Source of the DNA: Desulfovibrio sp. OttesenSCG-928-A18
GTDB taxonomy: Bacteria > Desulfobacterota > Desulfovibrionia > Desulfovibrionales > Desulfovibrionaceae
Direction of reading: 5' to 3'
Assembly: GCA_030267245.1 (NCBI GenBank)
Contig: JAJDJN010000002.1
Span: 1 to 42,712 of the forward strand
DNA: 42,712 nucleotides
The first letter of the stretch is position 1. Each line of letters begins with the position of its first letter. The notes beneath the pieces are model-generated. The model did not search any database. It was given only the letters and a program-made list of their open reading frames with translations, and was not told the DNA's origin. A program made the translations under genes and the position numbers. Shown here piece by piece: positions 11,907 through 27,854 of the stretch.

Positions 11907-13712
11907 CTATGTACGATTCCCCTGACACTCCGGCCAACCAGTACAGCCCCAAAAATCATAGCCGCCCTTGCCGTCTTTGCCGGGCTTTTTCACCCGATGC
12001 GCCATAGGCTTGCCGCATTTTTCGCAGACTTTCCCCGTAGCCTTGGCAAATTCCTGCACTTCCTTGGAAAGCTGGTCATGGGCAGAAGCTATGACGGCAC
12101 GGTATTCTGCCTTCCCTTCCGCAATATCGTCAAGGGATTGCTCCATTGTGCGGGTGAAGTCATACTCTATGAAAGAAAAATGCCCGCAGAGGCCGGAAAC
12201 GATTTTTTCACCAAGGGGCGTAGGCACAAGGAAGCGTTTTTCCGTGGTGACATATTTCCGGCTGGAAATCGTGTCTATAATCGCCGCATAGGTGGACGGA
12301 CGGCCAATGCCGCGTTTTTCCAGTTCGCGGATAAGGCTGGCTTCTGTGAATCTGGCGGCGGGCTTGGTCTTTTTCGTTGTGACGGTTCCTGTCAGCGCCG
12401 TAGCTTTTGTGCCGGGCTTCATGGCCGGAACGGGGTTCAAAGGCTCTTTCTCGCCTTCTTCTGCTCCTTCATCCGGGCCATTTTCCTGATCGGCCAGAAC
12501 TTTCCAACCTTGCGAAAGCAGAGTGCGGCCCTTTGCCTCAAATAGAGCCTGTTTCCCGTCCATTTCCGTGCCGAGTTGGAGTGTCCGAACCGCATAAACC
12601 GCATCTTCCAACTGGCAAGCCAGGGAGCGCAGCCGGATAAGGCGATACAAGGCTTTTTCGTCCGCTGTTTCCCCGGCTTCCTCAATTTCAATGTGAGTCG
12701 GTCTAATGGCCTCATGTGCTTCTTGCGCCCCCTCTTTTGATTTCCATTTGCGGGGCGTTTCCACCAGCGGCCAGCCCTTTGTTTCGCAATACGCCCGGAT
12801 CGCCTGGATCGCCTCTTGCGAAAGATTGGGGCTGTCCGTTCTCATGTAGGTAATCGCGCCTTGCTCATAAAGACGTTGCGCCAGTTGCATGGTTTGCTTG
12901 GGGCCAAATTTCAGTGACGAACTGGCGGTTTGCTGCATCGTTGAAGTGGTGAATGGAGCCGGAGGCGCGGTTCGGCTCTCGGATTCTTTGCAATCAAGCA
13001 CGTCCAGCGTCCGCAGCGCAGCCGCCTTTTCCGCAAGAGATTTTTCAAGCAAATATTCCTGCCCCTCTTCAAGCCAGGGCTTTACCAGAAGCGCCGCTTT
13101 CCAGCCGTCAGTGATGTTGTCCACATTTTCAAAGGTAAGTTCCGCACCGTAGTGGGTTGTGCTGGAAAAGGCTTTGATTTCCTTTTCCCGATCCACCACC
13201 AGACGCACAGCCGGGCTTTGCACCCGGCCAGCGGAGAGTTTTTCGCCGGAAGCATTGGAGAGCGGCCCGGAAACCATGTAGCCGCAAAAGCGATCCAGAA
13301 CCCGGCGCCCTTCCTGTGCGGCCACCAAAGCCATATCAATGGAACGCGGAGCGGAGAGCGCGGCGAGAATGGCCGCTTCCGTGATTTCCGTATAGGTGAC
13401 GCGCTTGGCGTTTTTGAGTTTCAGGGCGTCTTGCAGATGCCACGCAATAGCTTCCCCCTCTCTATCGGGGTCAGTGGCAAGGAAAACTTCTTCCGCGTTC
13501 TTCACCATCCCGGCCAGCCGAGATAAAACATCCTTGCCCCTGTCCGTGGGAGTATACTTCGGTTTGAAGTCGGGAGCGGCCACGCCCATTTCCTTGACGG
13601 GCAGATCGCGCACATGGCCGACAGAGGCGGCAACCTTCCAGCCGGGGCCGAGGATTTCCTGTACTTTTTTCACTTTGCCGGGGGATTCAAGAATCAACAG
13701 TTTCGCGCACAT
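11907..13712 (-). CDS. type IA DNA topoisomerase (TopA-like, short form with a C-terminal zinc ribbon)
   Basis: MCAKLLILESPGKVKKVQEILG; FLATDPDREGEAIAWHL; YMRTDSPNLS; RGIGRPSTYA; CEKCGKPM...CTGWPEC. Confidence 0.93.
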   Translation of the reverse strand: MCAKLLILESPGKVKKVQEILGPGWKVAASVGHVRDLPVKEMGVAAPDFKPKYTPTDRGKDVLSRLAGMVKNAEEVFLATDPDREGEAIAWHLQDALKLKNAKRVTYTEITEAAILAALSAPRSIDMALVAAQEGRRVLDRFCGYMVSGPLSNASGEKLSAGRVQSPAVRLVVDREKEIKAFSSTTHYGAELTFENVDNITDGWKAALLVKPWLEEGQEYLLEKSLAEKAAALRTLDVLDCKESESRTAPPAPFTTSTMQQTASSSLKFGPKQTMQLAQRLYEQGAITYMRTDSPNLSQEAIQAIRAYCETKGWPLVETPRKWKSKEGAQEAHEAIRPTHIEIEEAGETADEKALYRLIRLRSLACQLEDAVYAVRTLQLGTEMDGKQALFEAKGRTLLSQGWKVLADQENGPDEGAEEGEKEPLNPVPAMKPGTKATALTGTVTTKKTKPAARFTEASLIRELEKRGIGRPSTYAAIIDTISSRKYVTTEKRFLVPTPLGEKIVSGLCGHFSFIEYDFTRTMEQSLDDIAEGKAEYRAVIASAHDQLSKEVQEFAKATGKVCEKCGKPMAHRVKKPGKDGKGGYDFWGCTGWPECQGNRT

Positions 13713-13773
13713 GACGTTTCCTTATTTCTAAGGCCGTCATGCGGCGCGAAATTGGGGCGCATGGCCCGCAGGG
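13710..13773 (-). promoter_or_regulatory. leader element copy A (5' of topA), Com-associated structured leader
   Basis: CCTGCGGGCcatGCGCCCCaatttcgCGCCGCATGACGGCC ahead of ATG; GCCG-CATGA-CGGC hairpin shared with copy C. Confidence 0.5.
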
Positions 13774-13818
13774 ATAGTTGAGGATTATTCAGAAAACCGG
13801 GATAAAGTTTTCGGTGAG

Positions 13819-14094
13819 CTATTCGTGTTTATTTGTGCAGCAGGAACAACGCGCACTCGGTACAATATCTTTTTGCGGCAAAAACTTGATGATTTCAACG
13901 GAGCAGCACCGTCCGCGCGGGTTATTGTTTTTGCAATCTCCCTTGATACATGCGCCGGTCATAGTGCGAACATCATCAAGCGTCTTTGCCCCGTTTGACA
14001 CCGCAGCCCGTATAGCGCCAGCGGACACTTGGGCGCACCAGCACACAAATTCATTATCGGACGCTTCAAGAACATTTTCAGTATACTGTTTCAT
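13819..14094 (-). CDS. BFD-like [2Fe-2S]-binding protein
   Basis: VCWCAQVSAGAIRAAVSNGAKTLDDVRTMTGACIKGDCKNNNPRGRCC resembles the BFD-like domain. Confidence 0.7.
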   Translation of the reverse strand: MKQYTENVLEASDNEFVCWCAQVSAGAIRAAVSNGAKTLDDVRTMTGACIKGDCKNNNPRGRCCSVEIIKFLPQKDIVPSARCSCCTNKHE

Positions 14095-27036: not shown

Positions 27037-27326
27037 TTGAAACCCCCTACAGGCCGCCAGCGGCTTGCCTTGGCCGGGTAAAACTCCTGTTGCTTGATAT
27101 GCCGCAGCCAGACCCGGCTCATAATCGGGTCAGCCTTTGCCATGCGCCGGAGCGCGAACACCGCCGCAATCCAGAAGCCGACTGCGGACGTGACGGAAAC
27201 AGCCGTCAGACCGCCCACGCCCACCAGCAGCGCGATAAGGGCGCTGGTCATAACCAACTCCCTTTCCGCGCCGAGGATATGGGCATGGCGGTGCAAAGAT
27301 TGATGAATGGGGAGCGGACGGCTCAT
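27030..27326 (-). CDS. trbD: TrbD/VirB3-like protein
   Basis: Short two-TM protein directly upstream of trbE. Confidence 0.85.
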   Translation of the reverse strand: MSRPLPIHQSLHRHAHILGAERELVMTSALIALLVGVGGLTAVSVTSAVGFWIAAVFALRRMAKADPIMSRVWLRHIKQQEFYPAKASRWRPVGGFKC

Positions 27327-27670
27327 ATGACCGCCCCGGAGAAGGAAAACACGCTGTTGACGATGGATGCGGCAAAGGCAATGAAGCTGATGCCGAACAC
27401 CACGGACAGGAGCAGCTTGAAACCGCCGCTGATGTCATCCTTGTTCATTATGAATATGACGCCGCAGAGGGCCATAGCGACAATGGAAATCCATTTACCA
27501 GCCGGGCCGGTGATGGTGTTCACCACCCGTTCCAAGGGACTGGAAAATTCCGTGATGCCGCCCGATGCGGCGGCAATGTCAGGGAAGCAAAGGCAGAGAG
27601 CCAGAAAGCCGAAAACGGCAAAGGAAGAGAAAGGGACTTTACGAGTGGGAAGAAGATTGGTTCCGCGCAT
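27323..27670 (-). CDS. trbC: TrbC/VirB2-like pilin precursor
   Basis: MRGTNLLPTRKVPFSSFAVFGFLALCLCFPDIAAA signal, two TMs; RBS GGAGA before ATG at 27670. Confidence 0.85.
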   Translation of the reverse strand: MRGTNLLPTRKVPFSSFAVFGFLALCLCFPDIAAASGGITEFSSPLERVVNTITGPAGKWISIVAMALCGVIFIMNKDDISGGFKLLLSVVFGISFIAFAASIVNSVFSFSGAVI

Positions 27671-27854
27671 AACGATCTCCGTAGAGGCCGTCATGCGGCG
27701 CGGCGTTGGGGCTTGTAGCCCGCAGGACGATTCTGCTTTTGCAGCGAGGGCAGAAAAGCTCGATTTCTCCAGCTTCTATGCGGCCCTTTGCCAGAAGTTT
27801 GTTGCACTTCCCGCAGCGAAGATTGCCGGGATCATGCGCCTGTTCAGTGTTCAT
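27639..27854 (-). CDS. Com-like (phage Mu Com family) zinc-finger protein, predicted RNA-binding translational regulator
   Basis: LRCGKCNKLLAKGRIEAGEIELFCPRCKSRIVLRATSP: CxxC...CPRC Com-type finger; overlaps trbC start by 32 bp. Confidence 0.75.
   Translation of the reverse strand: MNTEQAHDPGNLRCGKCNKLLAKGRIEAGEIELFCPRCKSRIVLRATSPNAAPHDGLYGDRYARNQSSSHS
27668..27727 (-). promoter_or_regulatory. leader element copy C (5' of trbC/virB2, inside the com-like 3' end)
   Basis: CCTGCGGGCtacaaGCCCCaacgcCGCGCCGCATGACGGCCTC ahead of ATG; two short hairpins. Confidence 0.5.

What the first reader, a model, noticed from the sequence alone, without database searches (positions are those of the whole stretch)
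13710..27727. Three copies of one structured leader precede topA, virD4/traG and virB2/trbC: a putative post-transcriptional regulon
Seen on the minus strand: A (13773-13710), B (19168-19095) and C (27727-27668) share CCTGCGrGC-n-GCsCCCmr-n-CGCGCCGC, then a hairpin and GGCCT, then 10-20 nt to ATG. Copies A and C have GCCG-CATGA-CGGC. Copy B replaces it with a longer GCCGCCC-n10-GGGCGGC stem at the same place, which suggests structure is conserved. A second small stem (GGGCT/AGCCC in C, GGGC/GCCC in A, GCGA/TCGC in B) precedes it. All three read in one frame as a com-like tail (LRAxxPxxAP), and only C has the intact com-like gene. Inference: com-derived leaders were duplicated in front of key transfer genes so one protein co-regulates them.
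Basis: partly seen in the sequence, partly recalled or inferred. Interest (0 to 1): 0.88.

Follow-up and report, generated by a model that had tools for sequence, protein, structure and literature searches.

The report
Com-responsive RNA switches controlling conjugation genes
A mobile element in a Desulfovibrio-type bacterium carries near-identical RNA switches in front of its DNA-transfer genes, built from the same RNA hairpin that the phage Mu protein Com is known to grip, so one tiny zinc-finger protein probably turns on translation of several conjugation genes at once.

Summary
A model built only from other genomes finds A, C and B (E 2e-15, 4e-13, 1e-9; next hit 0.16) and eight copies in the genome. 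The same leaders precede virB2 (always with com), virD4 and topA, and in single elements virB9, an integrase and a Dam methylase, with conserved order and spacing in at least six genomes.

The leader is two tandem hairpins whose loops read C-NN(N)-GA, the published motif of Mu-like Com. A model trained on phage com tails without Mu has its best hit in the Mu com-mom region on the mapped Com site. All eight stem pairs show compensatory changes. The second hairpin competes with a stem that buries ribosome site and AUG, supported by permutation tests.

Best reading: the com tail is itself an RNA switch, copied ahead of transfer genes, so Com acts in trans as a translational activator. Binding and activation are untested. 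Copy B's second hairpin is altered and lacks the AUG-burying arm, so its regulation is uncertain.

The parts
27639..27854 (-). com: 71-aa Com-like zinc-ribbon protein; its last ~31 nt overlap the start of virB2
   Evidence: PF10122 E 3.5e-9, four Cys intact; same arrangement as Mu com-mom, which also overlap
27683..27726 (-). Leader C (inside com tail, before virB2): hairpin 1 27721-27709, hairpin 2 27699-27687
   Evidence: R3 55.7 bits, E 4e-13
27663..27703 (-). Predicted translation-inhibition stem of copy C (CATGACG with CGTTATG, CCGCGC with GCGCGG), burying SD and AUG of virB2
   Evidence: MFE -29.2 kcal/mol, SD/AUG mean unpaired probability 0.28
27323..27670 (-). virB2/trbC pilin, target of C
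   Evidence: PF04956 E 3e-15
19111..19165 (-). Leader B (orphan, before virD4): hairpin 1 weakened, hairpin 2 altered to GCCGCCC-N10-GGGCGGC, no CATGACG arm
   Evidence: R3 42.4 bits, E 1.3e-9, with 14 nt in place of 3 in the hairpin-2 loop
17061..19097 (-). virD4/traG coupling protein, target of B
   Evidence: PF02534 E 5e-109
13729..13772 (-). Leader A (orphan, before topA): hairpin 1 13767-13755, hairpin 2 13745-13733
   Evidence: R3 64.3 bits, E 2e-15
13701..13751 (-). Predicted translation-inhibition stem of copy A: TTTCGCGC/GCGCGAAA, CATGACG/CGTCATG, CCTTA/TAAGG, burying SD and AUG of topA
   Evidence: MFE -36.8 kcal/mol, SD/AUG mean unpaired probability 0.21
11907..13712 (-). topA, type IA topoisomerase, target of A
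   Evidence: PF01131 E 5e-105

Best explanation
Each leader is a Com-responsive translational switch. Two tandem hairpins (4-bp stems 9 nt apart; loops C-NN-G-A/C in hairpin 1 and C-NN-GA in hairpin 2) are binding sites for the zinc-ribbon protein Com. Without Com, hairpin 2 opens and its CATGACG strand pairs with CGTCATG at the start codon while CCUU/CCUC pairs with the Shine-Dalgarno sequence, so the gene is not translated. Com binding, probably while the RNA is being made, holds the hairpins and frees the ribosome site. In the com gene the switch is encoded by the C-terminal tail and serves the next gene in cis, as in phage Mu com-mom. In this family of conjugative elements the switch has been copied, without com, ahead of virD4 and topA (in single elements virB9, Dam methylase, integrase), so one Com protein made from the com-virB2 unit acts in trans on the transfer regulon. 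Shown by computation: copies, synteny, hairpin covariation, match to the published Com motif and Mu site, competition with a start-burying stem. Inferred: Com binding, direction (activation), action in trans.
For: (1) A leave-genome-out model finds A, B, C and 5 more copies in the genome, with none at intermediate scores. (2) Copies before com-virB2, virD4 and topA with the same order and spacing (~8.5-9 kb, ~5-7 kb) in G022, G082, G246, G268, G301 and the window's genome; start codon almost always at +56-60 of the leader. (3) Among com genes chosen by zinc ribbon only, hairpin 1 is 88% Watson-Crick against 65+-2% permuted and 53+-3% under synonymous recoding; hairpin 2 is 77% against 53+-2%. 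In alignment A5 8 of 8 pairs change on both sides, covariation 0.444 against 0.165 shuffled, and RNAalifold draws the same two hairpins unaided. (4) The Arg codon in hairpin 1 is AGG/AGA in 52 of 54 com genes against 36 of 272 Arg codons in the ribbon. (5) Hairpin loops equal the Com SELEX motif CC(N)2-3GAG, and the native Mu Com site GAAUGCCUGCGAGCAUCCC is a hairpin 2 (PMC6483171); model R2, trained without Mu, has its best hit in the Mu com-mom region exactly there (1074-1091, E 0.0065). (6) Leader-start complementarity exceeds permutation for phage leaders (-11.9 against -10.0+-0.26) and element leaders (-18.0 against -16.7+-0.36, p 2e-4), and not for a control stretch 60 nt into the gene. 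(7) Virus-type relatives carry the leader before Mom and N6/N4, C5 and D12 methylases, the known business of Com. (8) In the 151-genome sample, 7 of 9 genomes with orphan leaders have com against 24 of 142 others (p 2e-4).
Against: No binding or expression data. Hairpin 1 in these elements often has loop CNNGC (AA in copy C), and the GA dinucleotide was the protected one in Mu. B lacks the start-burying arm and its start is as open as ordinary genes (0.56), so it may be constitutive or decayed. The stem-start permutation is not significant among 'MCAK' starts alone (p 0.19). The predicted OFF fold is about 9-14 kcal/mol below the ON fold, so Com would have to act co-transcriptionally. Two genomes with orphan leaders show no com (both draft). 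In P. syringae a stop in a plasmid copy of a com gene before a levansucrase gene had no effect (PMC3899960), though other com copies in that genome could have complemented it.
Confidence: 0.8

Rival explanations
1. The orphan leaders are recombination or duplication scars: short homologous modules spread with gene cassettes, with no present regulatory role.
For: High identity between copies (A and C share an 18-base block exactly); some copies sit on decayed genes (L293 virD4 cut at 58 aa; L330 15631 before no gene); B is altered.
Against: Position relative to the start codon is kept to within a few bases in diverged virD4 and topA genes; leader-start complementarity is kept by co-change; hairpin loops keep GA in hairpin 2 while spacers vary.
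Confidence: 0.1
2. Com represses rather than activates: it binds the leader and blocks ribosome access, giving feedback on transfer genes.
For: The sites lie close to the SD; repression by leader-binding proteins is common (general knowledge).
Against: Mu Com is an activator (PMC6483171); the Com hairpin and the start-burying stem use the same strand and cannot coexist, which favours activation.
Confidence: 0.07
3. The leaders are Com-independent cis switches (thermometer, attenuator or ribosome-coupled stem), and Com is incidental.
For: The stems are strong and adjoin the AUG; com itself is absent at orphan sites.
Against: Loop and stem match the Com SELEX motif and Mu site; association with com genes; no Rfam family matches.
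Confidence: 0.08
4. The shared stretch is a conserved peptide (com tail, LRAxxPxxAP), read as a leader peptide or fused tail.
For: All copies read LRA..P..AP in one frame.
Against: Mu reads the hairpin-2 site in another frame (NACEHP); phage tails read ER..AS where these read APHDG at the same hairpin; 23 of 30 leaders scored as orphans have no SD-preceded start in that frame and one has a stop inside; rare AGG codon and pairing beyond the synonymous null.
Confidence: 0.02

Closest known systems
Phage Mu com-mom translational activation (Com, PF10122; Mom, PF25680)
   Same: Zinc-ribbon Com; com overlaps the target gene; 4-bp hairpin with C-NNN-GA loop next to a start-burying stem; model R2 hits the mapped Mu site.
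   Different: Two tandem hairpins instead of one; hairpin 2 itself contains one strand of the inhibitory stem; targets are conjugation genes; switches copied to several genes in trans.
com genes before bacteriocin, levansucrase and glycosyl hydrolase genes in Pseudomonas (PAPE; PMC3899960, PMC6240691)
   Same: com leader captured by non-mom genes; conservation runs into the first 48 bp of the coding sequence.
   Different: There each target is described as having its own com; the passages read here describe no orphan leaders and no RNA motif.
Ribosomal-protein or CsrA-type RNA regulons (general knowledge)
   Same: One RNA-binding protein, several leaders in trans.
   Different: Different protein family and RNA motif; switch carried on a mobile element.

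Membership tests
Com/mom translational activation system | Com zinc ribbon with four metal-binding cysteines | tested here: met
   PF10122 E 3.5e-9, CxxC...CxxC intact
Com/mom translational activation system | com directly upstream of and overlapping its target gene | tested here: met
   com 27854-27639 overlaps virB2 start 27670; Mu com and mom overlap likewise
Com/mom translational activation system | Com-binding hairpin, motif CC(N)2-3GAG, just upstream of the start | tested here: inconclusive
   Met family-wide in com tails. In the window hairpin 2 of A and C has loop CAUGA but a G-C closing pair; hairpin 1 of A has loop end GC and of C AA instead of GA; B lacks the motif in hairpin 2
Com/mom translational activation system | Translation-inhibition stem burying SD and start codon | tested here: met
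   A and C by folding; family by permutation. Not met for B
Com/mom translational activation system | Com binds the leader and activates translation | not testable with these tools
   needs EMSA and reporter assays
Com/mom translational activation system | Target is the Mom DNA-modification enzyme | tested here: not met
   targets are VirB2, VirD4, TopA; a related leader does precede Mom. So it is not a com-mom operon; the claim is that it works like one
Known Rfam RNA family | match above gathering score | tested here: not met
   only a tRNA matches in the window; no relevant match in 18 related loci

The most novel reading that the evidence does not exclude
Com is a general RNA-regulon protein of mobile elements: the conserved tail of PF10122 proteins is conserved as RNA (tandem Com hairpins plus start-burying stem), and conjugative elements of Desulfovibrionaceae have turned it into a trans-acting switch that turns on pilin, coupling protein and topoisomerase, and in some elements integrase and methylase, together.
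Probability: 0.72. Interest if true: 0.85.

Novelty: new variant of a known kind. Interest (0 to 1): 0.78.

Why it matters
Com has been known mainly as the activator of one gene, Mu mom. If this is right, Mu com-mom is one case of a wide family of protein-controlled translational switches, and a conjugative element uses such switches as a post-transcriptional master control of DNA transfer. It also explains why Com proteins keep an otherwise disordered tail: the tail encodes the RNA site. The covariance models give a ready genome-wide test for further targets.

Tried and rejected
The first IUPAC pattern in the window failed because its spacing was wrong. Rfam at gathering and E-value thresholds: nothing relevant. 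Peptide reading of the leaders: rejected. Hits of the exact pattern in Streptomyces, Sorangium, Planctomycetota and similar showed no com and no start spacing on inspection and were set aside as chance. L342 15618 was first scored as a com tail and L016/L294 6617 as an orphan; both corrected by translation. L070/L333 (10393/7174) is a com tail with a frameshift, not an orphan. Com in plasmid records and leader C in phage records: no match. Covariation of the C/A base at two 'GMG' sites was noticed but not pursued, as it may follow lineage.

Full report
WHAT IS THERE. On the minus strand of the window lies a transfer region: virB11, com, virB2, virB3, virB4, an unassigned gene, virB6, virB8, virB9, an unassigned gene, virB10, virD4, an ArdC-Toprim protein, topA. 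Copies C, B and A of the leader precede virB2, virD4 and topA. C lies inside the tail of an intact com gene (PF10122) whose last bases overlap virB2, the same arrangement as com-mom in phage Mu. A and B have no com gene.

IS IT MORE THAN CHANCE. A covariance model made only from leaders of other genomes finds A, C and B at E 2e-15, 4e-13 and 1e-9, with the next hit at 0.16. The genome has eight copies and then a wide gap: the three here; com-virB2 and virD4 leaders of a second element on C13; a topA leader and a Dam methylase (PF05869) leader on C223; and an integrase-like gene (arm domain PF13356, ORF short) on C283. With a 41-base pattern, 10 of 151 relatives match and the reversed control pattern never does.

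RELATED ELEMENTS. Model R1 finds leaders in 62 of 249 family genomes at E <= 0.001; many of the weaker ones are near the noise level. At E <= 1e-6 in a class-wide sample 38 of 299 genomes match, all but one in the window's family, the other in the same order; a VirD4-like gene lies on the same short contig there. The trio com-virB2, virD4, topA recurs with like spacing in G022, G082, G246, G268 and G301; com-virB2 plus virD4 in G271. In G067 a leader precedes virB9 (CagX). The start codon is almost always 56-60 nt from the leader start. Com-type leaders in other Desulfovibrionaceae loci precede Mom (PF25680) and N6/N4, C5 and D12 methylases, sometimes as com-methylase followed by orphan-methylase.

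WHAT THE LEADER IS. Com genes from viral contigs, chosen by zinc ribbon only, carry in register after the ribbon the stretch TG-A-(4-bp stem, loop C-NN-G-A/C)-9 nt-(4-bp stem, loop C-NNN-GA). Hairpin 1 is 88% Watson-Crick over 41 distinct tails, against 65+-2% after shuffling partners and 53+-3% with synonymous codons; hairpin 2 is 77% against 53+-2%. The arginine codon inside hairpin 1 is AGG or AGA in 52 of 54 cases, against 36 of 272 in the ribbon. In A5 all eight pairs show double changes and RNAalifold finds the same two hairpins by itself. A5 was chosen partly for the 6-nt loop form, so searches are the fairer numbers. Within the conjugative elements hairpin 2 hardly varies, so the covariation comes from the wider family.

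LINK TO MU. Nowacka et al. 2019 (PMC6483171) report that a Mu-like Com selects GAG(N)2CC pairs, that the bound form is CC(N)2-3GAG in a hairpin loop, and that the native Mu site is GAAUGCCUGCGAGCAUCCC. That is a closing C, a loop C-N2-3-GA and a G: hairpins 1 and 2 of the com-tail family. Model R2, built without Mu, has its best hit in the Mu com-mom region at the mapped site, as hairpin 2. Mu reads this site in a different frame, so it is the RNA, not the peptide, that is kept.

THE SWITCH. In most element leaders the predicted minimum-energy fold is hairpin 1 plus a long stem in which CATGACG pairs with CGTCATG around the start codon and CCUU/CCUC pairs with the SD. This stem uses the hairpin 2 strand, so the two exclude each other. 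Permuting start regions among leaders lowers the pairing (phage set z about 7.6; element set p 2e-4; a control stretch inside the gene shows no effect). Starts after leaders are more buried than other starts, though modestly (0.35 against 0.42, p 0.001). Copy A is the strongest: TTTCGCGC/GCGCGAAA plus CATGACG/CGTCATG plus CCTTA/TAAGG.

COPY B. Its hairpin 2 is GCCGCCC-N10-GGGCGGC, with neither the CNNGA loop nor the CATGACG arm, and hairpin 1 has mismatches. Most virD4 leaders in other elements keep the ordinary form. B is probably a locally altered copy, perhaps constitutive.

WHAT IS INFERRED. That this Com binds these leaders, that it activates, that it acts in trans on A and on copies elsewhere. 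Co-occurrence of com and orphan leaders (7 of 9 against 24 of 142 genomes) fits but is partly explained by both lying on the same element. A published negative result exists for a P. syringae com stop mutant, with other com copies present (PMC3899960).

NOVELTY. Com control of mom is old; com before other genes in Pseudomonas is known (PMC3899960, PMC6240691). In the open-access library I found no description of the general com-tail RNA switch, of orphan leaders or of control of conjugation by Com; subscription papers were not searched.

Noticed in passing
window 14159-16378 (-): 739-aa fusion of ArdC N-terminal domain, zincin-like peptidase, DUF5710 and Toprim, between virD4 and topA: an anti-restriction/primase-like fusion.
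   Followed up: no
window 13819-14229 (-): Small Cys-rich protein just upstream of leader A, resembling a BFD-like [2Fe-2S] domain by eye; no search done.
   Followed up: no
L330 1464, L345 12816: Extended hairpin-2 variant with ~12 inserted bases that keeps the start-pairing arm, different from copy B.
   Followed up: partly
L344/L354 1291-1500: Com leader directly before a Mom-family gene (PF25680 E 1e-71) with a second leader before an N6/N4-type methylase, in Desulfovibrionaceae; the com reading frame seems shifted before its tail.
   Followed up: partly
L326 1383; L332 3211; many viral loci: A ~53-aa protein (GxNGFKYREQFGVIVICKDEAEHKxVYERLK) with no Pfam match repeatedly follows com leaders.
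   Followed up: no
G000:C223 30.7-31.2 kb; G007:C39: Dam methylase gene next to topA in related elements, with its own leader in one of them.
   Followed up: partly
window 32740-32816 (-): tRNA-Glu gene, a possible integration site near the element's edge.
   Followed up: no
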